From contig OX392534.1 of assembly GCA_947623455.1 (NCBI GenBank), positions 9,248,001 through 9,312,000 of the forward strand: a stretch of DNA of 64,000 nt. The letters are read 5' to 3'. Both the position numbers and the translations under genes were made by a program. This document shows positions 752-64,000 of the stretch, piece after piece; positions within the stretch are counted from its first letter, which is position 1; the number at the start of each line of letters is the position of its first letter. Origin of the DNA: Mimachlamys varia. Taxonomy: Eukaryota; Mollusca; Bivalvia; Pectinida; Pectinidae. Below the pieces are notes generated by a model. It saw only the letters and a list, made by a program, of their open reading frames with translations. It searched no databases and was not told the origin of the DNA.

Positions 752-3700
752 CTACCACAGTTCGCCATCACGATCTTTAGCTGGCACTTCGATCACTCGA
801 GGTTTGTCAATTATCCTAGCCGTACGATTTCCCTTTTCTACAATTCCTATAATCCATGACTGGTACCCTTCCTGTTTTTCTATATCCTTACAGAAAGCTG
901 CAGCCTGCTCTCGGGGTAAGGCCATCAACAGACCACCTGAAATACAAGACAGTAAACTGGGTCAAAATGAATGCATACTGTATTCTGGCAACACCAAGTG
1001 GTGATATATGGGAGATAACTCCAGCAAAGTTTTAATTTTACACCCATGATTACTTTAAAGTAAGAGAAAAGTGTCCATCAGACTTGGTTAATGAAAATCC
1101 ATTAATGGTAAAAATAATTTTTATGTTAACAATTTTTAACAATCGTAAACAGTACAGATCGACCCTGATACATCTAAAGTGTACAGATCGACCTTGACAC
1201 ATCTAAACTGTTCAAATTAATCAGTATTAAGTACATTCAGCCATATACCTGATGTTTCTGCAGAGAGACCTTGCAGTAGGCCAAACATATTTCCACAAGC
1301 TTTGCTGATGGCAGCCATTTTAGCAATGATGGGCAGATTGTGTATCACGAAGCTGACTTCATTCTTCTGTACTTTGGCTAGATTCTTTGCATGGCCTAAC
1401 AAACCAAATCCTGTCACATCTGTGGCACCATGGGCGTTGTATTTAGCCATCAGACGTGCCGCTACAAAATATAAACACTAAAGTTGAAGTTCTGGAAAGA
1501 GATATCAATATGTTTAATGACAATTAGAAACAAACAGCATTTGCAGGATTTCATCAAAACATAGATATATTAGGATATGACCAATTGACAGATCCTGATT
1601 TATCTCAACTGGTCAAGACAAGATGATACAATATTTGGACAGGAGAAAGCACAAAATCCAAAATTTAAGACGGTGGTTCCCTCAAAAAAATGTTTGTTTC
1701 AAAGCACTACATCTTATATTTTCAATGTGAACAGTTCCGGTGTCAGCCGCACTGGCGACAAGTGGCCAATCCACAAATACAACTACATTGTACCAGTTAA
1801 TTCCATGCCATATTAATACTTAATGGTGTATACAGGCCTTTTCTGATGGCCCATAATGGGTAAATTTCTTTCCCAATTTCAGATGCAAAAAAATCTCTTG
1901 TGAAATTGAAATACATGATATCTGTCATGACTCCACTGCATTTATATTTTCTGTCAGACGATCAGGTGATTTATTTCATTTTCCCTACGGTTATGCTTTC
2001 ACTGGTGGTATAATCTACTGTTTATCACTGGCTTTGTTTACAATACAGAATGCAAAACGTCTAAAACCAACTTGGAAAACCAAAATTCATAGATGTCATC
2101 CATGCCCCCTCCATATTTACCCTTATTTTGAAAAAGGTACCAGCTTTCTATTTTCTGTACCTGTATGGACAAACAGTTTTTGTACTTACTCAAACATTGC
2201 ACATGGAGGTAGTGATGAAAAATAACAATATGGGACTCTTTCGAGGCCCCTCAATTGGAATGAGTACACTTTAAATCCTTCAACGAATATGAGGTAATGA
2301 AACTTTCGTCTCGACTTGTCTGATGAACCCGTACAAGAGAATCCATTAAATATTAGTTATTTCACAAGATATTTTAATTATTTATGATTTTATCAATAAA
2401 CATAATTGAAGGATACTTAGTAGTGTGAATACTGCTGAAAGGCACCGACCTGATTATACAGTTATAGGCATGAATTTTTTCATTTACACAAATAAAAAAG
2501 TTTATAGGTCCAGTACTTTTTAATCTCTTCCAAGTAATTCAAAATCACTTGCAGAATGAACAAATATTTGAAAATTTTGTTGTTGTTGCGATTCTGAACA
2601 CTAAAATCTTTTTGTACAAAACCTTAGTTTACTTTAAAGTTATACAGTAGACTGCGCTTAATATCACTTCTCATTTGTCCGGGGAAAACATGATATTAAC
2701 CGGTACGTGATATTAAAAGAAAACATATTTTCTGACATTTTTCAGCGCTCAAAACCGGAAGTGGACTTGGTTAAATGTCGTAGTGCTGTGACTCAACTGA
2801 GAAGATTGTTGAATAAAGATTTTTTATCACTAACATTGTTTTTTCACTCCAGTGACAGTATATTCTTTGGTTTTATTCTGGAAAGCACTTATTTTCATAT
2901 ATTTTGTTCGTACGTAATATTACCAGTAGGCTACTGTAGCTTCACACGAAACGTACTACGATTGTTTACTGCAGTAGGCCTAGTGATGTAGACATACAAG
3001 TGGCTGGTATTCTGCATCAAATTCGTGTTTTAAAATCACGACACTTCGTAAATATTTACCGTTATCTTGATATGTATACTGGTTTTTCGCTTGTGAAATC
3101 TGTTGTTAGTTTAATCTCTTTAGATATTCGCTGCAAGTGTGACATCGTTTCCACAGAGTTTGTCAGTTGTATACCGCTACCGCGAAATGAACTTTTACCT
3201 TTGAAACGTGACGTTTCATTGGATGACCTCTATGCAAATAAAACAACCATGCGATAATATTTAGTCTTGGCACTTAGGCCTATTCACCAGTAGGCCTAGA
3301 ATCACGGCATGTCGGCGTCGTACTTTGGTTATTTAAAAATCAAAACAAAGACGATATCTTCGCATTTTACGTGAACATTAGCTTAAATTAATTAATTTGG
3401 ACATTCATTGTTTAAAAGACACTTTTTATTTTAATTTCAATCAATATTTCGTCATGTTTACGGAAGACCATCCACTTGTAAGCCTTCTTCACGAAAACGT
3501 GATTTCAATCTTGAGACGAGCTGAAATGAAATATAGAACTCGTGTTAGGGACACATTAAATCACACATGGCGTTAGTTAAGATTACAAAAGTATGGGTTC
3601 CCTCACCCAAAGGTGTAATCTTTGCTCCGGTATGCCAAGTCAATCTATTGTTCGACTAGTATGAAGGGTAATGCAGTGATCAGGTAGGTGTGAAAAAGAC

Positions 3701-8060: not shown

Positions 8061-10090
8061 TATTCTATATTACTGAGAGGATAACAGGTACCCGGATGCC
8101 TGTTGGGAGGAATCATTGTTGATATATTGCAGATGAGAGGTTTTTGTCTTTAGTATGCACGCATTATAAGTTCTAAAACTATCTAATTTATCAATGATAA
8201 GATTGTCATAAATTCGTGAAAGTATCGTTTGAATTGTCAACGTATTTAAAATTTGTGTAACCGGGGAGACGGAAAACCAGTCCCAAGTTTCCTCTGTCTT
8301 TCTTTCTCTATAATATTAATCACCCAGTCGGCATTTAAATATATATATACCACTACACTGATGTTTCAGTGTTCAACAAAAAGTTTAGATGTAAAACATT
8401 GGTAAATATGGGATCCTGTTAAAAAAAATCCAATTCGTTCAGAATCCAAGATCTATATTTTGACACTTACAAAAATGTAGGCCTTTAAAAGAAGCTTATA
8501 AATTCTAAAATTAATAGGTTATATATAATAAGCCAAAAATATGGTATCGTTACTGGGCAGATATATTGATGTGCATATTTTTTTTTGTAACGGGAAATGT
8601 TATGGACAGACGTGTTGTATGCATATTAAGTGTATATTCAATTTTACAGCATTTAACATCCAACATAATTAACACTTTGTGTGGATCAAACTGCAAATAG
8701 TATCACCAAATATGTAAAATGCATGTGCATATATAGCAAGCCTACCTTCCTCGGTTCAAACACAGAATTAGATTATGCTATCTAAGTCCGTGGTTCAAAA
8801 GATTTTTGAATTATGCCAATATCGCGTAAAAGTTGTGGTTCATTAGATGATAGACTAGCAGTTGCAGATTTTGTATGTCGGGGGGAAAAACTAGTATCTA
8901 GCTATAGCATATTATATTAATGCAAGAGAATGCTTGAATTATTTCATCTGCCTTAATCGTTCACAGCTGTGTACGCACGAATCAGGCTGATGACATACAT
9001 GAAGCACATTTAATTTCTCATTTATAGGCCATAACTACAGCGATATATTCGTCATAGTTATAATTCAGTTGTTCCCCTTTTAAAATCAACCCGGTTAACG
9101 TACCAGTTCCATTTTATTCTGCAATGTCAACATAAACTTTGTAGTTTTTTTTATAGATCAGTAAAGTAACGATATATAAAAACGGATCTCCTGGTTTTGT
9201 GACAAAACAAACCTTTAATTTATCAATGTTAATTTACAGAAATTCTACACGTTTGGATAATGTTTTCCCAACGCACGTGCTTCAACCAAGGAATTTGAAA
9301 CATTTCCCCTTCAGAGAAACTAAAATGCGCTTCGCTATAAAACAGCTGAGATATCTAATTAAGAGATAAAGTCCCGAGTGCATTAAAGCCTAGAATGTAG
9401 AAAAGTACATTACGTGGAAGCTAGAGAGACTTAACCGACATCTTTAATTCAGAATCAGTTTAAAACCAATAAAAACTAATTATCGATTCCAAAGACGAAA
9501 TTTTCACTTTAGTAAATATCCATAATCTTTTTCATCTAACTGACGTCAATGCCTGTTAATTAACGACAATCAGGGTGTACAGGCGTAATACTCCACCTGA
9601 GAATCGAATAGCGGCACGATGACGTCATCGCGGTGATATGCAGACTCATCTTTTCTGATATCAAAACATATCTGATAACTTAAGCGGAAATACATTGAAA
9701 ACGCTTCACACTTATCAAATCAAATTGAACGTTAAATAGTATGTTAAATAGGATAAGTATTTATGTTACGTGAATTTTAAAATGTTTTAGCAAATGTTCG
9801 TATCGTCCTATAACACTGGCTACTGATGACAATTAATAAAACCCGGTAACAATTTATGTAAGGTTGTCAACAATAGAAATGTGTGCTATATGACCATAAC
9901 AATAATTTCTAAAATATTCCTTGTTCATATTGACATTTTATAGTAAAAGAATGCTGTTTTATTTAGTTATTCTCAAAGAATTTTGAACCACAAATACCAA
10001 GTGTTGACAACAATGAAATTTATGTAGCAATAGAGATTGATGACGTGACAATAGCAAATGCTGTTATTGACTCATAACAGCATTTGCCTT
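8060..10090. other. Intergenic stretch upstream of the selenophosphate synthetase gene
   Basis: AT-rich, with no exon recognised on either strand. Two further CRE palindromes (TGACGTCA) occur at 9541-9548 and 9620-9627. A lone tctaagtccgtggttca at about 8778 resembles the hairpin arms found at 40.9-41.0 kb. Confidence 0.6.
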
Positions 10091-10103: not shown

Positions 10104-10312
10104 GGGGCCGCGGTGGCCGAGTGGTTAAGGTGTCCCGACATTCTACCACCAACCCTTTGGTTTGCGAGTTCGGAACCCACGTGGGGCAGTTTCCAGGTCG
10201 GTGGTTTTTCTCCGGGTACTCCGGCTTCCCTCCACCTCTAAAACCAGACACATCCTTAAATGACCCTGGCTGTTAATAGGACGTAAAGCAAAATAAACAA
10301 AACCAAACCAAA
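10104..10312 (+). mobile_element. tRNA-derived SINE, full length, with 13-bp target duplication
   Basis: The head resembles a tRNA with box A TGGCCGAGTGG (10114-10124) and box B GTTCGGAACCC (10168-10178). It is followed by a non-tRNA body (ggtttttctccgggtactcc) and an A-rich tail of aaacaaaaccaaaccaaa type. CTCAATGTATTTA flanks it exactly at 10091-10103 and 10313-10325. This is a retroposed element rather than a functional tRNA gene: the fold continues into SINE body sequence and it carries a target duplication. Confidence 0.88.
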
Positions 10313-11600
10313 CTCAATGTATTTAATTGGAAAGATACATAGCAAATGTAATATACTGTATGGTACGATATGCACTCAATGGTTTGGTGCAAATCATTTT
10401 CCCATAAATAACACTATTGATTCCGTGGTTGGTGAAACACTATAATGTGAAGACAATACTAACGGCGGGGGAAAGCGGACTGTGTACTGAGGTGAGGGAG
10501 GGACCGTCTACTGAGGTAAGGGAGGGACTGTGTACTGAGGTAAGGGAGGGACTGTCTACTGAGGTTAGGGAGGGACTGTCTACTGAGGTAAGGGAGGGAC
10601 TGTGTACTGAGGTAAGGGATGGACTGTGTACTGAGGTAAGGGAGGGACTGTCTACTGAGGTAAGGGAGGGACTGTCTACTGAGGTAAGGGAGGGACTGTC
10701 TACTGAGGTAAGGGAGGGACTGTCTACTGAGGTAAGGGAGGGACTGTCTACTGAGGTAAGGCAGGACTGTCTACTGCGGTAAGGGAGGGACAGTCTATTG
10801 ATGTAAGAGAGGGACTGTGTACTGAGGTAAGGGAGGGACTGTATACTGAGGTAAGGGAGGGACTGTGTACTGAGGTAAGGGATGGACTGTGTACTGAGGT
10901 AAGGGAGGGACTGTGTACCGAGGTCATGGAGGGACTGTGTACTGAGGTAAGGGAGGGACTGCAAACTGAGGTAAGGGAGGGACTTTATACTGAGTTAAGG
11001 GAGGGACTGTGTACTGAGGTAAGGGAGGGACTGTCTACTGAGGTAAGGGAGGGAGTGTCTACTAAGGTCAGGGAGGGAGTGTCTACTAAGGTAAGGGAGG
11101 GACTGTCTATCGAGGTAAGGGAGGGACTGTGTACTGAGGTAAGGGAGGGACTGTCTACTGAGGTAAGGCAGGGACTTTCTACTGAGGTAAGGGAGGGACT
11201 GTCTACTGAGGTAAGGGAGGGACTGTCTACTGATGTAAGGGAGGGACTGTCTACTGAGGTAAGGGAGGGACTGTGTACTGAGGTAAGGGAGGGACTGTCT
11301 ACTGAGGTAAGGCAGGGACTTTCTACTGAGGTAAGGGAGGGACTTTCTACTGAGGTAAGGGAGGGACTGTCTACTGATGTAAGGGAGGGACTGTATACTG
11401 AGGTAAGGGAGGGACTGTGTACTGAGGTAAGGGAGGGACAGTCTACTGAGGTAAGGGAGGGACTTTATACTGAGGTAAGGGAGGGACTGTGTACTGAGGC
11501 AAGGGAGGGAGTGTCTACTGAGGTCAGGGAGGGAGTGTCTACTAAGGTAAGGGAGGGAGTGTCTACCGAGGTAAGGGAGGGACTGTCTACTGAGGTAAGG
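10181..11600. repeat. First copy of a 1,420-bp tandem segmental duplication
   Basis: The SINE body, its 3' flank and the start of the minisatellite (from 10181) recur from 11601 at a constant offset of 1,420 bp. The flanks to about 10478 and 11898 are nearly identical, differing for example at ctccgggtac/ctccgagtac. The join at 11600/11601 fuses a minisatellite unit directly to the SINE body. Confidence 0.85.
10477..11600. repeat. 24-bp minisatellite, array A (about 47 units)
   Basis: The unit has the core ACTGAGGTAAGGGAGGG plus a variable gactgtctact/gactgtgtact part, 24 bp in total. As 24 is a multiple of three, long repetitive open frames appear on both strands. These are artefacts: no start context, domains or splice structure support a protein. 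Nearly every unit contains GAG|GTAAGG, close to the 5' splice-site consensus. Units near 10770-10820 carry indels. Confidence 0.95.
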
Positions 11601-11760
11601 GTGGGGCAGTTTCCAGGTCGGTGGTTTTTCTCCGAGTACTCCGGCTTCCCTCCACCTCTAAAACCAGACACATCCTTAAATGACCCTGGCTGTTAATAGG
11701 ACGTAAAGCAAAATAAACAAAACCAAACCAAACTCAATGTATTTAATTGGAAAGATACAT
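11601..11760 (+). mobile_element. 5'-truncated SINE copy inside the segmental duplication
   Basis: SINE body and tail equal to 10181-10312, with the right-hand target duplication CTCAATGTATTTA at 11733-11745 but no tRNA head. It was produced by the tandem duplication, not by a separate insertion. Confidence 0.85.
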
Positions 11761-11896
11761 AGCAAATGTAATATACTGTATGGTACGATATGCACTCAAT
11801 GGTTTGGTGCAAATCATTTTCCCATAAATAACACTATTGATTCCGTGGTTGGTAAAACACTATAATGTGAAGACAATACTAACGGCGGGGGAAAGC

Positions 11897-14560
11897 GGAC
11901 TGTGTACTGAGGTAAGGGAGGGACTGTCTACTGAGGTAAGGGAGGGACTGTGTACTGAGGTAAGGGAGGGACTGTCTACTGAGGTAAGGGAGGGACTGTG
12001 TACTGAGGTAAGGGAGGGACTGTCTACTGAGGTAAGGGAGGGACTGTCTACTGAGGTAAGGGAGGGACTGTGTACTGAGGTAAGGGATGGACTGTGTACT
12101 GAGGTGAGGGAGGGACAGTCTACTGAAGTAAGGGAGGGACTGTATACTGAGGTAAGGGAGGGACTGTGTACTGAGGTAAGGGAGGGACTGTCTACTGAGG
12201 TAAGGCAGGGACTTTCTACTGAGGTAAGGGAGGGACTGTCTACTGAGGTAAGGGAGGGACTGTCTACTGATGTAAGGGAGGGACTGTCTACTGAGGTAAG
12301 GGAGGGACTGTGTACTGAGGTAAGGGAGGGACTGTCTACTGAGGTAAGGGAGGGACTTTCTACTGAGGTAAGGGAGGGACTTTCTACTGAGGTAAGGGAG
12401 GGACTGTCTACTGATGTAAGGGAGGGACTGTATACTGAGGTAAGGGAGGGACTGTCTACTGAGGTAAGGGAGGGACTGTCTACTGAGGTAAGGGAGGGAC
12501 TGTCTACTGAGGTAAGGGAGGGGCTGTGTACTGAGGTAAGGGAGGGACTGTGTACTGAGGTAAGGGAGGGACTGTCTACTGAGGTAAGGGAGGGACCGTC
12601 TACTGAGGTAAGGGAGGGTTTGTGTACTGAGGTAAGGGAGGGACTGTATATTGATGTAAGGGAGGGACTGTGTACTGAGGTAAGGGAGGGAATGTGTACT
12701 GAGGTAAGGGAGGAACTGTGTATTGAGGTAAGGGAGGGACTGTCTACTGAGGTAAGGGAGGGACTGTCTACTGAGATAAGGGAGGGACTGTCAACTGAGG
12801 TAAGGGAGGGGCTGTGTACTGAGGTAAGGGAGGGACTGTCTACTGAGGTAAGGGAGGGACTGTCTACTGAGGTAAGGGATGGACTGTGTACTGAGGTAAG
12901 GGAGGGACTGTCTAATAAGGTAAGGGAGGGACTGTGTACTGAGGTAAGGGATGGACTGTTTACTAAGGTAAGGGAGGGGCTGTGTACTGAGGTAAGGAAG
13001 GGACTGTGTACTGAGGTGAGGGAGGGACTGTCTACTGAGGTAAGGGAGGGACTGTGTACTGAGGTAAGGGAAGGACTGTGTACTGAGGTAAGGGAGGGAC
13101 TGTCTACTGAGGTAAGGGAGGGGCTGTGTACTGAAGTAAGGGAGGGACTGTCTACTGAGGTAAGGGAGGGACTGTCTACTGAGGTAAGGGATGGACTGTG
13201 TACTGAGGTAAGGGAGGGACTGTGTACTGAGGTAAGGGAGGGACTGTCTACTGAGGTAAGGGAGGGACTGTCTACTGAGGTAAGGGAGGGACTGTCTAGT
13301 GAGGTTAGGGAGGGACTGTCTACTGAGGTAAGGGAGGGACTGTGTACTGAGGTAAGGGAGGGACTGTATACTGAGGTAAGGGAGGGACTGTGTACTGAGG
13401 TAAGGAAGGGACTGTGTACTGAGGTAAGGGAGGGACTGTCTACTGAGGTAAGGGAGGGACTGTGTACTGAGGTAAGGGAGGGACTGTCTACTGAGGTAAG
13501 GAAGGGACTATGTACTGAGGTAAGGGAGGGACTGTCTACTGAGGTAAGGGAGGGACTGTGTACTGAGGTAAGGGAGGGACTGTGTACTGAGGTAAGGGAG
13601 GGACTGTCTACTGAGGTAAGGGAAGGACTGTCTACTGAGGTAAGGGAGGGACTGTCTACTGAGGTAAGGGAGGGACTGTCTACTGAGGTAAGGGAGGGAC
13701 TGTCTACTGAGGTAAGGGAGGGACTGTCTACTGAGGTAAGGGAGGGACTGTCTAATAAGGTAAGGGATTGACTCCGACTGAGGTAATGGAGGGACTGTCT
13801 ACTAAGGTAAGGGAGGGACTGTGTACTGAGGTAAGGGAGGGACTGTCTACTGAGGTAAGGGAGGGACTGTCTACTGAGGTAAGGGATGGACTGTGTACTG
13901 AGGTAAGGGAGGGACTGTGTACTGAGGTAAGGGAGGGACTGTCTACTGAGGTAAGGGAGGGACTGTCTACTGAGGTAAGGGAGGGACTGTCTACTGAGGT
14001 TAGGGAGGGACTGTCTACTGAGGTAAGGGAGGGACTTTGTACTGAGGTAAGGGAGGGACTGTATACTGAGGTAAGGGAGGGACTGTCTACTGAGGTAAGG
14101 GAGGGACTGTCTACTGAGGTTAGGGAGGGACTGTCTACTGAGGTAAGGGAGGGACTGTCTACTGAGGTTAGGGAGGGACTGTCTACTGAAGTAAGGGAGG
14201 GGCTGTGTACTGAGGTAAGGGAGGGACTGTTTACTGAGGTAAGTGAGGGGCTGTGTACTGAGGTAAGGGAGGGACTGTGTACTGAGGTAAGGGAGGGACT
14301 GTCTACTGAGGTAAGGGAGGGACTGTGTACTGAGGTAAGGGAAGGACTGTGTACTGAGGTAAGGGGAGGGACTGTCTACTGAGGTAAGGGAAGGACTGTC
14401 TACTGAGGTAAGGGAGGGACTGTATACTGAGGTAAGGGAGGGACTGTCTACTGAGGTAAGGGAGGGACTGTCTAATAAGGTAAGGGAGGGACTGTGTACT
14501 GAGGTAAGGGAGGGACAGTCTACTGAGGTAAGGACGGACTATTTACTGAATTAAGAAAAG
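11897..14560. repeat. 24-bp minisatellite, array B (about 110 units)
   Basis: Same unit as array A, longer and more homogeneous. Variants include gactgtgtact versus gactgtctact and occasional aaggaaggg or aagggatgg. One extra base near 14364 shifts the open frame. The last units (14520-14560) decay into aattaagaaaaggac. The plus strand is purine-rich with two GGG runs per unit. Confidence 0.95.
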
Positions 14561-20320: not shown

Positions 20321-38627
<18,307 letters not shown>

Positions 38628-47759: not shown

Positions 47760-48590
47760 ACACTTTTTGATGTTTAAACTCACTTGCCATTTGGTTTTCC
47801 AATTCTCCAATGTTCTGATGTCCTGTTGTAGTATCTGGCTGTAAGGGTTGAATCAATAATGCGATACATAATACAGTCATCCCCAAATAGTCGTACTGTA
47901 GATTTGATGTTATCCGGAAGGCCGTTGATGCAGAGTAGGAAAAGCACTGGGCCTACACATGTACCCTGAGGTACCTCAGATGCTACTTCTGCTGATGCTG
48001 ACGATTTCCATCTACAATGACTTTCTGGCGGCGATTAACAAGAAAGGCTTCAATCCAGGTGTTAACAGGTCCTCTTTTTCCATAATAATCCAATTGATTG
48101 AGGAGCCTTCTATGTGCGACGGTATCAAACGCTTTACTAAAATCCATCACTATTAGGTCCAGTTGTTTACCTACATCTACGTTAGTTGCTAGGCTATGAA
48201 AAGGTTCAGCCAGTTGGGTTTCGAGGGTCTTTTGGCTTGGAACCATGTTGCTTACCATGTAGGATGGAGTTGTTGTCAAGATTGTTCATTATACTACTGA
48301 CTAGAATGTGTTCTATTATTTTACAGGTACTACTTGTAAGTGAAACCGGCCTGTAGTTGGCTGCATTATACCGCTCACCCTTCTTAGATATCGGAGTCGC
48401 GTAGGCCTCTTTCCAATCCTCTGGAACGATTCCAGTGTCGAGGGACATCTTGAAAATAGTGTCGATGGCTGGAGCTAGCTCTTCCGAGCACTCAAGAAGG
48501 ACACGTGCTGATATACCGTCAGGTCCTGAGGCCTTATAAATGGGGATTGATGTTCTTCAATAGTTTGAGTACTTCTGGTATCGTACGTTA
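47760..48590 (-). pseudogene. Non-LTR retrotransposon (CR1/Jockey-like LINE) reverse transcriptase fragment
   Basis: Minus-strand frames read, in order, SGPDGISARVLLE, VPEDWKEAYATPISKKGE, NYRPVSLTS, FSKAFDTVAHRRLLNQL and then LFGDDC in a shifted frame. These match RT motifs 1-5, with the catalytic FADD box altered to FGDD. At least two frameshifts and truncation at both ends make it a dead copy. Confidence 0.85.
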
Positions 48591-54080: not shown

Positions 54081-54104
54081 TCCGGTTATACTTCTCCGTA
54101 TCAT

Positions 54105-56096
54105 ACACATCTCGGGAGCTTTATTTGTTCCGCCATTCTCGTATATATACATCTCTGGAGCTTTATTTGTTCCGACATTCTCGTATATATACATCTCGGG
54201 AGCTTCATTTGTTCCGACATTCTCGTATATATACATCTCGGGAGCTTCACTTGTTCCGCCATTCTCGTATATATACATCTCGGGAGCTTCACCTGTTCCG
54301 CCATTCTCGTATATATACATCTCGGGGCTTCATTTGTTCCGCCATTCTCGTATATATACATCTCGGGAGCTTCACTTGTTCCGCCATTCTCGTATATATA
54401 CATCTCGGGAGCTTCACTTGTTCCGCCATTCTCGTATATATACATCTCGGGGCTTCATTTGTTCCGCCATTCTCGTATATATACATCTCGGGAGCTTCAC
54501 CTGTTCCGCCATTCTCGTATATATACATCTCGGGGCTTCATTTGTTCCGCCATTCTCGTATATATACATCTCGGGAGCTTCACTTGTTCCGCCATTCTCG
54601 TATATATACATCTCGGGAGCTTCACTTGTTCCGCCATTCTCGTATATATACATCTCGGGAGCTTCACCTGTTCCGCCATTCTCGTATATATACATCTCGG
54701 GAGCTTCACTTGTTCCGCCATTCTCGTATATATACATCTCGGGGCTTCATTTGTTCCGCCATTCTCGTATATATACATCTCGGGGGCTTCATTTGTTCCG
54801 CCTTTCTCGTATATATACATCTCGGGAGCTTCATTTGTTCCGCCATTCTCGTATATATACATCTCGGGAGCTTCACTTGTTCCGCCATTCTCGTATATAT
54901 ACATCTCGGGAGCTTCATTTGTTCCGCCATTTTCGTATATATACATCTCGGGAGCTTTATTTGTTCCGCCATTCTCGTATATATACATCTCGGGAGCTTC
55001 ATTTGTTCCGCCATTCTCGTATATATACATCTCTGGAGCTTCATTTGTTCCGCCATTCTCGTATATATACATCTCGGGGCTTCATTTGTTCCGCCATTCT
55101 CGTATATATACATCTCGGGGGCTTCATTTGTTCCGCCATTCTGGTATATATACATCTCTGGAGCTTCATTTGTTCCGCCATTCTGGTATATATACATCTC
55201 TGGAGCTTCATTTGTTCCGCCATTCTGGTATATATACATCTCGGGAGCTTTATTTGTTCCGCCATTCTCGTATATATACATCTCGGGAGCTTCATTTGTT
55301 CCGCCATTCTCGTATATATACATCTCGGGAGCTTCATTTGTTCCGCCATTCTGGTATATATACATCTCGGGAGCTTCATTTGTTCCGCCATTCTCGTATA
55401 TATACATCTCGGGGCTTCATTTGTTCCGCCATTCTCGTATATATACATCTCTGGAGCTTCATTTGTTCCGCCATTCTCGTATATATACATCTCGGGAGCT
55501 TCATTTGTTCCGCCATTCTCGTATATATACATCTCGGGAGCTTTATTTGTTCCGCCATTCTCGTATATATACATCTCGGGGGCTTCATTTGTTCCGCCAT
55601 TCTCGTATATATACATCTCGGGGCTTCATTTGTTCCACCATTCTCGTATATATACATCTCGGGAGCTTTATTTGTTCCGCCATTCTCGTATATATACATC
55701 TCGGGAGCTTTATTTGTTCCGTCATTCTGGTATATATACATCTCGGGGCTTCATTTGTTCCGCCATTTTCGTATATATACATCTTGGGAGCTTCATTTGT
55801 TCCGCCATTCTCGTATATATACATCTCGGGAGCTTTATTTGTTCCGCCATTCTGGTATATATACATCTCGGGGCTTCATTTGTTCCGCCATTTTCGTATA
55901 TATACATCTCGGGGGCTTCATTTGTTCCGCCATTTTCGTATATATACATCTCGGGGGCTTCATTTGTTCCGCCATTTTCGTATATATACATCTCGGGGGC
56001 TTTATTTGTTCCGCCATTTTCGTATATATACATCTCGGGGGCTTCATTTGTTCCGCCATTCTCGTATATATACATCTCGGGGCTTCATTTGTTTCA
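54105..56096. repeat. 41/42-bp minisatellite, about 48 units
   Basis: The unit runs through gttccgccattctcgtatat, atacatctcggga and gcttcattt. Most units are 42 bp; those with cggggctt instead of cgggagctt or cgggggctt are 41 bp and shift the reading frame. All frames stay open for long stretches, so the many long open frames here are by-products of the repeat. A tgttccgcc core and the tatatatac tract are invariant in nearly all units. Confidence 0.95.
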
Positions 56097-56640: not shown

Positions 56641-58480
56641 AAAGGGGTCATGAAAGACAAGGAAAGAGGTCCGAAATGGCCAAGGAAATATCATGAAAGA
56701 CCAGGAAGGGATCCGAAAATAACGTCAAAGGATATCCGAAAGCTAGACCTTAAAATGGGCCGAAATGACCAAGGATATCTGGAAGACCTGGAATGTGGAC
56801 TTAAATAGCCAAGGATATCTGGAAGTTCTGGAAAGGGGACCGAAAATACCAAAGATATCTGAAATACAATGTACCAGGAAATATGTCCGAGTAAGGATAT
56901 CTGATAGAAAAACCAGGAAGGGAGTTCGAAATGACCAAGGATATCCGGGGGAAAAGACCAGAAAAGTGGACCGAAATGGCGAAGGATATCTGGGGGACCG
57001 AAATGGCGAAGGATATCTGGAAGACCGAAATGGCGAAGGATATCTGGAAGACCGAAATGGCGAAGGATATGTGGAAGACTAGGAAAGTGGACCGAAATAC
57101 CAAGGATATCTGGGAGACCGAAATGGCGAAGGATATCTGGGAGACTAGGAAAGTGGACCGAAATACCACGGATATCTGGGAGACCGAAATGGCAAAGGAT
57201 ATCGGGGAGACTAGGAAAGTGGACCGAAATACCACGGATATCTGGGAGACCGAAATGGCGAAGGATATCTGGGAGACTAGGAAAGTGGACCGAAATACCA
57301 CGGATATCTGGGAGACCGAAATGGCAAAGGAAAGCGGGGAGACTAGAAAAGTGGACCGAAATACCAAGGATATCTGGGAGACCGAAATGGCGAAGGATAT
57401 CTGGAAGACCGAAATGGCGAAGGATATGTGGAAGACTAGGAAAGTGGACCGAAATACCAAGGATATCTGGGAGACCGAAATGGCGAAGGATATCTGGGAG
57501 ACTAGGAAAGTGGACCGAAATACCACGGATATCTGGGAGACCGAAATGGCAAAGGATATCGGGGAGACTAGGAAAGTGGACCGAAATACCACGGATATCT
57601 GGGAGACCGAAATGGCGAAGGATATCTGGGAGACTAGGAAAGTGGACCGAAATACCACGGATATCTGGGAGACCGAAATGGCAAAGGAAAGCGGGGAGAC
57701 TAGAAAAGTGGACCGAAATACCAAGGATATCTGGGAGACCGAAATGGCGAAGGATATCTGGGAGACTAGGAAAGTGGACCGAAATACCACGGATATCTGG
57801 GAGACCGAAATGGCAAAGGATATCGGGGAGACTAGGAAAGTGGGCCGAAATACCACGGATATCTGAAAGACCAGGAAGGGATCCGAAAATAACGTCAAAG
57901 GATATCCAAAAGCTAGACCTTAAAATGGGCCGAAATGACCAAGGATATCTGGAAGACCTGGAATGTGGACTTAAATGGCCAAGGATATCTGGAAGTTCTG
58001 GAAAGGGGACCAAAAATACCAAAGATATCTTAAATACAATGTATCAGGAAATATGTCCGAGTAAGGATATCTGATAGAAAAACCAGGAAGGGAGTTCGAA
58101 ATGACCAAGGATATCCGGGGGAAAAGACCAGAAAAGTGGACCGAAATGGCGAAGGATAGCTGGGAGACTAGGAAAGTGGACCGAAATACCAAGGATATCT
58201 GGGAGACCGAAATGGCGAAGGATATCGCGGAGACTAGGAAAGTGGACCGAAATACCACGGATATCTGGGAGACCGAAATGGCGAAGGATATCTGGGAGAC
58301 TAGGAAAGTGGACCGAAATACCAAGGATATCTGGGAGACCGAAATGGCGAAGGATATCTGGGAGACTAGGAAAGTGGACCGAAATGGCAAAGGATAGCTG
58401 GGAGACCGAAATGGCAAAGGATATCGGGGAGACTATGAAAGTGGGCCGAAATACCACGGATATCTGAAAGACCAGGAAGG
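56640..58480. repeat. 66-bp minisatellite with higher-order structure
   Basis: The 66-bp unit combines gaccgaaatggcgaaggata, tctgggagactaggaaagtg and gaccgaaataccacggatat. A 357-bp block at 57064-57420 is repeated almost exactly at 57421-57777. A roughly 290-bp leader at 56701-56990 recurs at 57871-58160, an offset of 1,170 bp. Degenerate units continue to about 58900. Long open frames on both strands come from the period being divisible by three. Confidence 0.93.
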
Positions 58481-58899
58481 GGGTCCGAAATGAGAAAGGT
58501 CAGAAAAGGAGACCGAAATGACCAAGGCTATGTGAAAGCCCAGGAAGGGGACCTGGAATTAGAGAGAGGACCGAAATACCAAGGATATCTGACAGACCAG
58601 GAAAGGGGCCTTAAATGACCAAGGACATAAGAGAAAAAAGACCTGATTCTGAAAAACCAGGAAAGGGGACTGAAATGACCGATAGAAGACCTTGAAAATG
58701 GACCGAAATGACTAAGGATATCTGGAAGACCTTGAAAGGGATCCAAAATTGCCAATCATATCTGGAAGATCATGAAAGAGGACCGAAATACAAAGGACAT
58801 ACGAAAGACCAGGAAAGGGGTCCGAAATGAAAAAGACCAGAAAAGGACCGAAATGACCAAGGCCGTGTGAAAGACCAGGGAAGTCGCCGAAATGACTGG

Positions 58900-60794: not shown

Positions 60795-61366
60795 ATGGCT
60801 GTGGTTGTGCGGTCCAAAATCCGTTTAAACTTTCTAATGTTGACATTATTTCCACTTCTGATACACTGTCGACCACAGACCGAGCAGGACTACCGGCAAA
60901 ACAGACACGGTCAGTATAAATCGTTATAGTAATTAGTAGATCTTATCGGAAATATTTATAATTGCGTTATAATTGATATTTTTTAAAGATTTATTTTGTT
61001 AATTATATTATCTGGTATGTTACAGGTGCGAAGGCTGAAGGAAAGGAAGTTGTGTACCCCGTTCGTTTGAATGCAGAGAGAACTAATCAACATGAAATTC
61101 ACAAAAGGGATATTACATTTAATGCAGATAATCTCAACGAACAGAAAGTTGTGTATATGTTCCCCGCCTATGGAAGGCAATTTTTATTTGACTTGAGTTT
61201 TACCAAAGATTTCATTTCACCTGGAAATATTTTAGTGGAGAAACATGAGGACAACCACACGTGGAGTGAGCACGGGTTTGGTGACAATTTGGAAAACTGT
61301 TTCTATACAGGAACTGTTAATAATGATACTTCCTCCAGGGCTGTTTTCAGCCTATGTGATGGCATG
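60795..61366 (+). CDS. ADAMTS-family secreted metalloproteinase, first two coding exons (partial; signal peptide and propeptide)
   Basis: Extracellular zinc protease family that remodels matrix; only the N-terminus is visible. Exon 1 (60795-60909) begins ATGGCTGTG with A at -3 and G at +4. It encodes a signal peptide with hydrophobic core LNFLMLTLFPLLIH and ends CACG|GTCAGT. Exon 2 (61026-61366) joins in phase 1 and encodes a reprolysin propeptide: VVYPVRLNAE, then FPAYGRQFLFDLSFTKDFIS, then NCFYTGTVNNDTSSRAVFSL and CDGM. This is the conserved CFYsGtVn...SlCdGm pattern of ADAMTS propeptides and, from memory, is nearest to the ADAMTS1/4/5/9/20 group. The exon ends ATG|GTAAGTCT in phase 0. The protease, disintegrin and thrombospondin exons are not in the window; they must lie downstream if the gene is intact. 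The donor region is amplified into a minisatellite. Confidence 0.85.
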
Positions 61367-62400
61367 GTAAGTCTATACAGGACTATGTTGAGCCTATATG
61401 ATGGCATGGTAAGTCTATATAGGACTATGTTCAGCCTATGTGATGGCATGGTAAGTCTATATAGGACTATGTTCAGCCTATTTGATGGCATGGTAATGTT
61501 CAGCCTATGTGATGGCATGTTAAGTCTATATAGGACTATGTTCAGCCTATGTGATGGCATGGTAAGTCTATATAGGACTATGTTCAGCCTATTTGATGGC
61601 ATGGTAAGTCTATATAGGACTATGTTTAGCCTATTTGATGGCATGGTAAGTCTGTATAGGACTATGTTCAGCCTATTTGATGGCATGGTAAGTCTATATA
61701 GGACTATGTTCAGCCTATTTGATGGCATGTTAAGTCTATATAGGACTATGTTCAGCCTATTTGATGGCATGGTAAGTCTGTATAGGACTATGTTCAGCCT
61801 ATTTGATGGCATGTTAAGTCTATATAGGACTATGTTCAGCCTATGTGATGGCATGGTAAGTCTATATAGGACTATGTTCAGCCTATTTGATGGCATGGTA
61901 AGTCTATATAGGACTATGTTTAGCCTATTTGATGGCATGGTAAGTCTGTATAGGACTATGTTCAGCCTATTTGATGGCATGGTAAGTCTATATAGGACTA
62001 TGTTCAGCCTATTTGATGGCATGTTAAGTCTATATAGGACTATGTTCAGCCTATTTGATGGCATGGTAAGTCTGTATAGGACTATGTTCAGCCTATTTGA
62101 TGGCATGTTAAGTCTATATAGGACTATGTTCAGCCTATTTGATGGCATGGTAAGTCTATATAGGACTATGTTCAGCCTATTTGATGGCATGGTAAGTCTA
62201 TATAGGACTATGTTCAGCCTATGTGATGGCATGTTAAGTCTATATAGGACTATGTTCAGCCTATTTGATGGCATGGTAAGTCTATATAGGACTATGTTCA
62301 GCCTATGTGAAGGTATGGTAAGTCTATATAGGATTATGTTCAGCCTAGGGAATTACCTAGCAAGTCTATAGGATTATGTTCAACCTAAGTTATGACATTG
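61346..62400 (+). repeat. 42-bp minisatellite made from the ADAMTS exon 2/intron 2 junction (about 24 units)
   Basis: Each unit is 21 bases of exon end (phrase FSLCDGM or FSLFDGM) followed by 21 bases of intron start (gtaagtctatataggactatg type, here quoted in part). Unit 1 is the genuine junction. Units 1-24 run to 62338; unit 4 lacks 15 bases. Donor GT is intact in 18 units (unit 4 reads GTAATG) and changed to TT in six: units 5, 10, 12, 17, 19 and 22. Units 7-12 and 14-19 repeat the same variant order at a 294-bp offset. The frame stays open to 62371. From about 62340 units decay, with traces to about 62650. Confidence 0.93.
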
Positions 62401-62649
62401 CAGGTCTATATGACTATGTTCAACTTATGTTATGACACAGCGGGTCTATAGGACTATAATTATGTTCAGCTTCTGCGATGGCATAGTATATAACTTTAAT
62501 CAGCTTATGTTGTCGTATAATAGGTCTATAGGACTATGTTCAGCTTCTGCGATGACATAGTAGGTCTATAACTATAATCAGCATATGCGGTTGCATGGCA
62601 AGTCTTTAGGACTACGTTCAGCCTACGCGATGACAGGGCATGTCTATAA

Positions 62650-64000
62650 AATACTGTGTCTATATCAAATTATGTGCGAAGGTAAATATAAAACAAGAAA
62701 AAGCTGAGACTTTGACGTTGGTCTTTGGTCTGCCTTCTAAGGCTTCCCCAGGCGGGCCAATACATTTCTATATAGACTGTTCTATCATAACGACATGGCC
62801 AGCAGTTCTGTGACATGGTAGGTCTCGGTGGCTAATCAGATCTGACTCGGATTCTCCCCGATAACGTGATAATTGGGGATACGCTTAGCCTCTGTGATGA
62901 CATGTTGACTGTGTAGTTATTTGGGTCTATTATAAAGATTACTATAAACTTAGGTTTGTACAGATTATACAGATGTAAGCTTTAAAGTGGGTGCAAATAG
63001 TTGGTATAAAAGTCTACGCTTTATACTGAAACTACATAATGATAATGTGCGGACTGGCGCATTTATAAGTCTATATAGATACCGGGCGACGTTGCAGGTG
63101 CTTTATAAAATACATTTAATGTAATTCGGTTATAAAATTGAAGTCTTCCGCTTTAAATTTCGAGTATAGATAGTAGAAACATTTTCTGTACAGTATGCTA
63201 CACGTAAAAAGCTCTCGGGACACGGCGGTTGGACGTGCTTCTATATTTGCCCCGTCAGAAGCCCAACACCTTACCGTCTGACAGATGGCCGTCTGGTTTG
63301 ACGAAATGACAAATAAATTCGACCCTCATAAAACAACGGGAGGAGTAAGACAACATATTTCTGACTTTAACGGCTAAACTCGACTTTCCTGAAATCGATT
63401 ACCGTTTAATAATAATATCCTATAGTCAAAAGTTGAAGATTTCGCGGCACTTTTAGGGTCCCGTCCGGAGATCTATAATTAGGGGTCCGTGACCGCTTTA
63501 TACAATCGGAACAGGAAACACTAAAACGGCCCTTTGCTCCCTTTGACGTCCAGACTGCAGACTCCGTTGTCCTGGTACCGTCCTTGGTGAAGTCGCGTGG
63601 ATTTGTCCTTGGTATCCGTCCCTGTGAAGATTTCATGTCATATCTCCACGAACGGCGATTAGACACGAACTTTGTCTTCTCTTTGTATGAAGTAACAGAA
63701 TTGTATTTGTTTTGTGTAATCTTCCTCGTGAAACAGTACATCAAAGCTGGCGATTATAGATGATCATTTATATAATCGCCTATTCCTGGCATCCTCCGAT
63801 ACGGCTGTGATACAGTTAGTGTGTGACGGCCGGGCGGGCACTCGAGGCGCATAGGGCTACGGCAATCTTTATCGCACGTATGGATGTATTAAATAGTTAA
63901 GTAGTTATAGAACTCAAAGTGTAAAAATGCGTCCCGTAAGCTGAGTCAGCAGTATTCTACATGGTTTCCTCATAGACACAATATAAACACGAGTTCACTG
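62650..64000. other. Probable intron of the ADAMTS-type gene
   Basis: No further exon recognised. A minus-strand open frame at 63406-63744 has no known domain. If the gene is intact, this is intron 2 running off the window. Confidence 0.4.

What the first reader, a model, noticed from the sequence alone, without database searches (positions are those of the whole stretch)
61346..62400. An exon-intron junction amplified into a tandem array of 5' splice sites in an ADAMTS propeptide
The 42-bp unit contains the last seven codons of exon 2 and the first 21 intron bases, so each unit re-creates a complete donor site. Of 24 units, 18 keep GT and six carry the same G-to-T loss. Every unit is in frame without stops, so using donor k instead of donor 1 would add about 14 residues per unit (VSLYRTM then FSLFDGM). 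Unit 1 keeps the conserved propeptide Cys (FSLCDGM); most other copies have Phe. Copy number is likely to vary between individuals, so splice choice and propeptide length could be polymorphic. I know of no described case of this kind, but cannot search.
Basis: partly seen in the sequence, partly recalled or inferred. Interest (0 to 1): 0.88.

Follow-up and report, generated by a model that had tools for sequence, protein, structure and literature searches.

The report
Repeated splice site in scallop gene
In a scallop gene for a tissue-remodelling enzyme, the point where a coding piece ends and an intron begins is repeated 24 times in a row, and six more introns of the same gene begin in a similar way, which makes the gene a natural test of how cells choose between many similar splice sites.

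Summary
At 61346-62338 a 42-bp unit (last 21 exon bases plus first 21 intron bases) stands 24 times; 18 units keep GT, 6 carry G-to-T, all open in frame. The gene is an intact ADAMTS9/20 orthologue, species taken as Mimachlamys varia: 39 exons, 1956 aa, 94% identical to a predicted Mizuhopecten yessoensis protein.

Donor 1 gives the protein seen in 12 molluscan orthologues, without insertion. The open frame needs no selection: only 2 of 126 possible changes make a stop. The kind is already described in human IFI6, CBS and ABCA7.

New here is recurrence: 7 of the gene's 38 introns begin with such arrays, of different units (7 of 68 arrays, 1.7 expected, simulated P about 0.0005; without the array I was given, 6, P 0.003). 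Two other genes have one each; two control genes have none at a donor. In 6 of 9 arrays every downstream donor brings an early stop, so donor 1 probably dominates. No RNA could be examined.

The parts
60795..60909 (+). Exon 1 (start codon, signal-peptide-like N-terminus), donor ACACG|GTCAGT, phase 1
   Evidence: Gene model with continuous frame; the signal-peptide reading is by eye
61026..61366 (+). Exon 2, ADAMTS propeptide, ends ...FSLCDGM| at donor 1 (phase 0)
   Evidence: PF01562 E 8.8e-12 on exons 1+2; no insertion across the junction against 12 orthologues when joined to exon 3
61346..62338 (+). Array of 24 units (21 exonic + 21 intronic bases), 18 with GT, 6 with TT, open in the exon's frame
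61472..61498 (+). Unit 4, 27 bp, in-frame 15-bp deletion that also damages its donor (GTAATG)
61541..61834 (+). Units 6-12, identical as a block to units 13-19
61835..62128 (+). Units 13-19, identical to the preceding seven-unit block
62339..62658 (+). Eight decayed, presumably older copies, spacing 34-46 bp; 2 of 8 keep GT; the exon's frame stops in the first of them

Best explanation
It is a minisatellite born by tandem duplication of the exon 2/intron 2 junction of an intact scallop ADAMTS9/20 gene, and since grown by duplication of blocks of units. Such arrays are tolerated because the first donor stays in place: everything added lies downstream of it and is removed as intron. I infer that splicing uses donor 1 for most transcripts, with at most a minority from the next one or two units (adding 14 or 28 residues to the propeptide), as in ABCA7 and IFI6. 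The array is one of seven donor-junction arrays in this gene. Shown: anatomy, open gene model, seven arrays, donor 1 giving the conserved protein. Inferred: duplication history, actual splicing, near-neutrality.
For: Donor 1 of each of the seven arrays gives a continuous 1956-aa frame over 39 exons, without insertion at all seven junctions against 12 molluscan orthologues, one of them 94% identical over 100%. Ten distinct variants among the 42-bp units give no stop, but only 2 of 126 possible changes would; P of none = 0.85, so openness needs no selection. Variants are 4 synonymous and 6 non-synonymous against 25 and 99 possible. In 6 of 9 arrays all 74 downstream GT donors give an early stop (73 inside the added sequence, 1 after a frame shift), so regular use of later donors would break those transcripts. 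A decayed tail plus an exact seven-unit block copy fit minisatellite turnover.
Against: No RNA was examined. 16 downstream donors in this array score as high as donor 1 (my own simple weight matrix), so strength alone does not favour donor 1. In ABCA7 the donor one unit downstream is used. Seven donor arrays against 1.7 expected are more than plain random seeding predicts.
Confidence: 0.7

Rival explanations
1. Donor choice in the array is used: individuals or tissues make propeptides of different length, in the 42-bp array and the other open ones.
For: All 17 downstream GT donors of the 42-bp array are in frame and open; so are 5 of 5 in L036 and 10 of 33 in the 21-bp array of exon 29. IFI6 and ABCA7 show that downstream units can be used.
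Against: Added residues would split a stretch whose LCxx(M/L)xG pattern is shared by all 13 aligned sequences. Openness is expected without selection. In 6 of 9 arrays every later donor gives an early stop. The predicted Mizuhopecten protein has no insertion there.
Confidence: 0.17
2. 5' splice sites of this genome are favoured starting points for tandem duplication (a mutational bias), so junction arrays arise again and again.
For: 7 of 68 intron arrays span a donor against 1.73 expected, simulated P 0.0005; 6 of 62 against 1.70 without intron 2, P 0.0028; 3' splice sites 2 against 1.73, P 0.54. Two further genes have one donor array each.
Against: Control genes: BRPF1 none at a junction in about 13 introns, hemicentin-like gene none at a donor after 16 exons, titin-like gene 1 after 11. 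Short duplications (2.0 and 2.2 copies) span 3' sites in the hemicentin-like and titin-like genes. Per base, donors are no more often inside repeats than random intron positions (7 of 34 against 26%). The expectation assumes uniform seeding.
Confidence: 0.3
3. The extra donors are kept by selection because they help splicing of the exon or recruit U1 snRNP.
For: Most downstream copies keep GT, for example 28 of 28 units at exon 13 and 14 of 14 at exon 34. Core donor positions diverge less than the rest in 6 of 8 arrays.
Against: My unit alignment was anchored on the donor, which favours that result. In the 42-bp array the G of GT is the second most variable site (6 of 24 lost). 31 of 38 donors of the gene have no such array.
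Confidence: 0.06
4. Assembly artefact, or a dispersed satellite that happened to land on the exon.
For: Arrays are common here: 21% of 284 kb.
Against: Assembly from 44-fold HiFi reads (PMC11252643, passages) and an array of about 1 kb. 16-base words of the unit occur at no other place in the 361 kb held (40 records; L007 is a second fetch of this same place). The exonic half is the conserved family motif. The whole-genome search did not complete.
Confidence: 0.03

Closest known systems
Human ABCA7 intron 18 VNTR (25 bp)
   Same: Array starts at the donor of a coding exon and use of the donor one unit downstream was observed (PMC5954066, passages)
   Different: Unit begins at the GT (no exonic part stated) and shifts the frame; highly polymorphic in people, while copy number here is known from one assembly only
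Human CBS 31-bp VNTR c.1444_1467+7(16_21)
   Same: By its name the unit spans the junction, 24 exonic + 7 intronic bases, 16-21 copies (PMC2630376, passages)
   Different: 31 bp is not a multiple of three; its splicing effect is recalled, not read here
Human IFI6 (6-16) minisatellite
   Same: Two downstream repeat units serve as splice donors, three mRNA species (PMC4526556, passage; Turri et al. 1995 seen only as a citation)
   Different: 12-bp unit (recalled), small gene, one array
Human CBS 844ins68
   Same: Duplicated intron 7/exon 8 junction with a choice between two splice sites (PMC2630376, passage)
   Different: One duplication, not an array

Membership tests
Exon/intron-junction minisatellite with multiple splice donors (IFI6/CBS/ABCA7 kind) | Array begins at the 3' end of a real coding exon | tested here: met
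   Exon 2 and orthologue alignment
Exon/intron-junction minisatellite with multiple splice donors (IFI6/CBS/ABCA7 kind) | Units carry intact donor sequences | tested here: met
   18 of 24 GT, 17 of 24 ATG|GTAAGT
Exon/intron-junction minisatellite with multiple splice donors (IFI6/CBS/ABCA7 kind) | Copy number varies between individuals | not testable with these tools
   One assembly held; an alternate haplotype exists (GCA_947622925.1) but is not held
Exon/intron-junction minisatellite with multiple splice donors (IFI6/CBS/ABCA7 kind) | Downstream donors occur in mRNA | not testable with these tools
   No RNA data held
ADAMTS9/20 (GON-ADAMTS) | Reprolysin propeptide | tested here: met
   PF01562 E 8.8e-12
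ADAMTS9/20 (GON-ADAMTS) | ADAMTS zinc site HExGHxxxxxHD | tested here: met
   HELGHVFNLPHD in the model; the motif is recalled
ADAMTS9/20 (GON-ADAMTS) | Many TSP1 repeats and a C-terminal GON domain | tested here: inconclusive
   No domain scan of the whole model; 94% identical over 100% to P0121, whose listed Pfam domains include PF00090 and PF08685

The most novel reading that the evidence does not exclude
In this scallop the 5' splice site is itself a preferred seed for minisatellites, so exon/intron junctions are repeatedly turned into arrays of up to about 35 similar donors (7 of 38 introns in one gene, and at least two other genes). The spliceosome still has to find the first donor, and array length becomes a heritable dial on isoform or transcript yield.
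Probability: 0.25. Interest if true: 0.78.

Novelty: new member of a known kind. Interest (0 to 1): 0.55.

Why it matters
How the spliceosome chooses between 5' splice sites of equal strength is usually studied with built minigenes (recalled). Here one gene offers seven natural series of about 5 to 35 similar sites in real introns; in most series many copies equal the first in score (exon 34 is the exception, 2 of 13). Some series keep the frame and some end in early stops, so RNA-seq already made for the species could show which copy is used. If donors prove to be favoured seeds of tandem duplication, that would be a little-noticed way in which splicing can become polymorphic.

Tried and rejected
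Dispersed satellite: not supported in the 361 kb held; a whole-genome search for the unit was sent eight times and never answered, so copies elsewhere are not excluded. Selection for an open frame: rejected as unneeded. Conservation of donor positions among units: computed but biased by my alignment, so not used as support. Excess of donor words on the sense strand of array units in the gene: 7 of 68 sense against 2 of 68 antisense, too few to weigh. A first catalytic-motif search failed because I used the ADAM form of the motif. A PDB sequence search with exons 1+2 gave nothing. The 24-bp array at 10477-14549 was set aside as a further case: by eye no exon lies beside it.

Full report
What was checked. 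The 42-bp array lies at 61346-62338: 24 units, 23 of 42 bp and one (unit 4) of 27 bp, the full ones made of the last 21 bases of an exon and the first 21 of its intron. 18 of 24 units have GT and 6 have TT; 17 of 24 carry ATG|GTAAGT. Sixteen units encode Phe, seven Cys and one Tyr at the conserved Cys position. Units 6-12 equal units 13-19, so losses of GT were partly copied, not repeated. From 62339 to about 62658 follow eight decayed copies spaced 34-46 bp, 2 of 8 with GT; the exon's reading frame stops at 62369-62371.

Where it is. The held genome has 975,302,275 bases in 71 contigs. Its contigs 3, 8 and 17 (64,126,803, 51,607,064 and 41,658,273 bases) agree with chromosomes 3, 8 and 17 of Mimachlamys varia (64.13, 51.61 and 41.66 Mb; PMC11252643, passages). 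The paper gives 975.4 Mb in 82 scaffolds, so small pieces differ. I take the species as M. varia. The assembly rests on 44-fold HiFi reads.

The gene. Fetching 220 kb downstream and mapping with a Mytilus orthologue, then correcting by eye, gave 39 exons from window position 60795 to 208352 in continued window numbering (the C8 position is 9,248,000 more); the stop codon ends 9 bases before that last modelled base. The frame is continuous for 1956 codons. A predicted Mizuhopecten yessoensis ADAMTS9-like protein of 1958 aa matches at 94% identity over 100%. Splice sites were chosen by a script and by me, with conservation as guide, not from RNA.

Donor 1 is the conserved splice site. At each of the seven array junctions of this gene, joining from the first donor gives an alignment to 12 molluscan orthologues, which I picked from the listed hits, without an insertion at the junction; four orthologue rows have a one-residue gap about 10 residues away. 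Around the exon 2 junction the pattern LCxx(M/L)|xG is shared by all 13 sequences. Any later donor would put 14 or more residues into it.

The open frame is not evidence of coding use. Against the consensus there are ten distinct single-base variants among the 23 full units: 4 synonymous, 6 non-synonymous, 0 stop. Of 126 possible changes, 25 are synonymous, 99 non-synonymous and 2 stop, so no stop among ten has probability 0.85.

It is not alone. Tandem Repeats Finder over the 284 kb showed more arrays that begin inside exons (seen, counted). In final exon numbering the donors of exons 2 (42 bp), 12 (27 bp), 13 (30 bp), 29 (21 bp), 31 (81 bp), 32 (68 bp) and 34 (20 bp) lie in arrays: 7 of 38 introns. 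The units differ in length and sequence; I did not test formally that they are unrelated. Units with GT: 18 of 25, 13 of 14, 28 of 28, 35 of 36, 6 of 6, 14 of 16 and 14 of 14 (it counts one decayed unit more for exon 2 and includes some decayed end units elsewhere). Two 3' splice sites also lie in arrays of three or more copies: before exon 20 (183817-184053, reaching only 3 bases into the exon) and before the last exon (207880-208307).

Is that more than chance? For each of 68 intron arrays (3 or more copies, period 10 or more) I asked how often its seed would overlap the donor if placed uniformly in the intron with the array collapsed to one unit. Expected 1.73, seen 7, simulated P 0.0005. 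Other settings: 2 or more copies, 7 against 1.80, P 0.0007; 5 or more copies, 6 against 1.25, P 0.0004 (there the exon 2 array is cut and drops out); period 20 or more, 7 against 1.71, P 0.0005. Without intron 2, which brought me here, 6 against 1.70, P 0.0028. 3' sites: 2 against 1.73, P 0.54; with 2 or more copies 3 against 1.80, P 0.26 (all). The counter-view must be told: by plain coverage, 7 of 34 donors tested were in repeats, against 26% of random intron positions, 2 of 34 acceptors and 1.9% of exon-interior positions (provisional model). The excess exists only relative to seed positions, which I hold to be the proper yardstick, since an array expands from its seed; but this is a model.

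Other genes. An ADAM-like gene on C10 (L010) ends an exon with NDNAQLIT and then 9.1 copies of a 50-bp unit with the donor; it is 1 of the 5 loci over the Pfam cut-off in the reprolysin search, and I saw no donor array in the other four. A titin-like gene on C17 has a 36-bp unit with 6.1 copies at one of 11 exons looked at, and a 2.2-copy duplication at a 3' site. A hemicentin-like gene on C3 had no donor array after 16 exons, but a 2.0-copy duplication at a 3' site. BRPF1 on the minus strand of the window, about 20.3-38.6 kb, had no array touching a junction in about 13 introns; its exact junctions were not modelled. The C10, C17 and C3 gene names rest on Pfam family hits and on my reading. 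So the phenomenon is not confined to one gene, but its rate outside this gene is low and uncertain: 2 of roughly 45 exons or introns looked at.

What the other arrays say. In the arrays of exons 12, 13, 31, 32, 34 and of L010 every downstream GT donor (11, 27, 4, 13, 12 and 7, together 74) would give an early stop: 73 inside the added sequence and one, the second donor of exon 34, after a frame shift. In the exon 29 array 10 of 33 stay open in frame, 22 meet a stop and 1 shifts the frame. In the exon 2 array 17 of 17 and in L036 5 of 5 stay open. So in six of nine arrays use of later donors would ruin the message. That fits arrays as tolerated by-products with the first donor doing most of the work, and fits poorly with a general role in protein diversity.

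What is known. Human precedents exist. CBS has a 31-bp VNTR named c.1444_1467+7(16_21), that is 24 exonic and 7 intronic bases (PMC2630376, passages). ABCA7 has a 25-bp VNTR whose first two bases are the donor of exon 18, from about 12 to 427 copies, with an isoform that retains one unit (PMC5954066, passages). IFI6 uses two downstream repeat units as donors (PMC4526556, passage; Turri et al. 1995 only as a cited title, since it is not held). So the array is a new member of a known kind. I noticed no report of many such arrays in one gene, or of such arrays in molluscs, in the listings of searches. Those of 25 and 71 showed only the first 15 of 1,410 and 10 of 77 papers, and the library lacks most subscription journals.

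Verdict. The sequence fact is right and was well read; the claim of no precedent is wrong; a function in protein diversity is possible but not indicated. The recurrence is the part that deserves follow-up, and public RNA and HiFi reads of the same species can settle it.

Noticed in passing
continued window numbering 207880-208307 (C8:9455880-9456307, in L028): A 120-bp unit, 3.6 copies, spans the 3' splice site of the last exon of the ADAMTS gene; the upstream copies carry the acceptor and exon start and would, by eye, give an alternative C-terminus ending in a nearby stop.
   Followed up: partly
L010 1649-2103: ADAM-like gene on C10: exon end NDNAQLIT plus donor repeated as a 50-bp unit, 9.1 copies.
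   Followed up: partly
L036, reverse complement 2835-3054: Titin-like gene on C17: exon end VTIKLKVL plus donor repeated as a 36-bp unit, 6.1 copies, in frame and open.
   Followed up: partly
L036 reverse complement 718-832, and L038+L039 reverse complement 9424-9533: Short duplications (2.2 and 2.0 copies of 51 and 55 bp) that span 3' splice sites in the titin-like and hemicentin-like genes.
   Followed up: no
10477-14549: About 170 copies of a 24-bp unit that contains GAG|GTAAGG on the plus strand, with no exon recognised by eye beside it.
   Followed up: partly
20342-38627, minus strand: BRPF1 (peregrin) gene, mapped with oyster orthologues; its introns are poor in arrays compared with the ADAMTS gene.
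   Followed up: yes
54092-56093 and 56745-58895: Large arrays of a 42-bp unit (48 copies) and of mixed 27/40/66-bp units, upstream of the ADAMTS gene.
   Followed up: no
about 10105-10300: A stretch that looks like a tRNA-derived SINE head (GGCCGCGGTGGCCGAGTGGTTAAGG...), by eye only.
   Followed up: no
48209-48556, minus strand: Open frame resembling a LINE-type reverse transcriptase fragment, by eye only.
   Followed up: no
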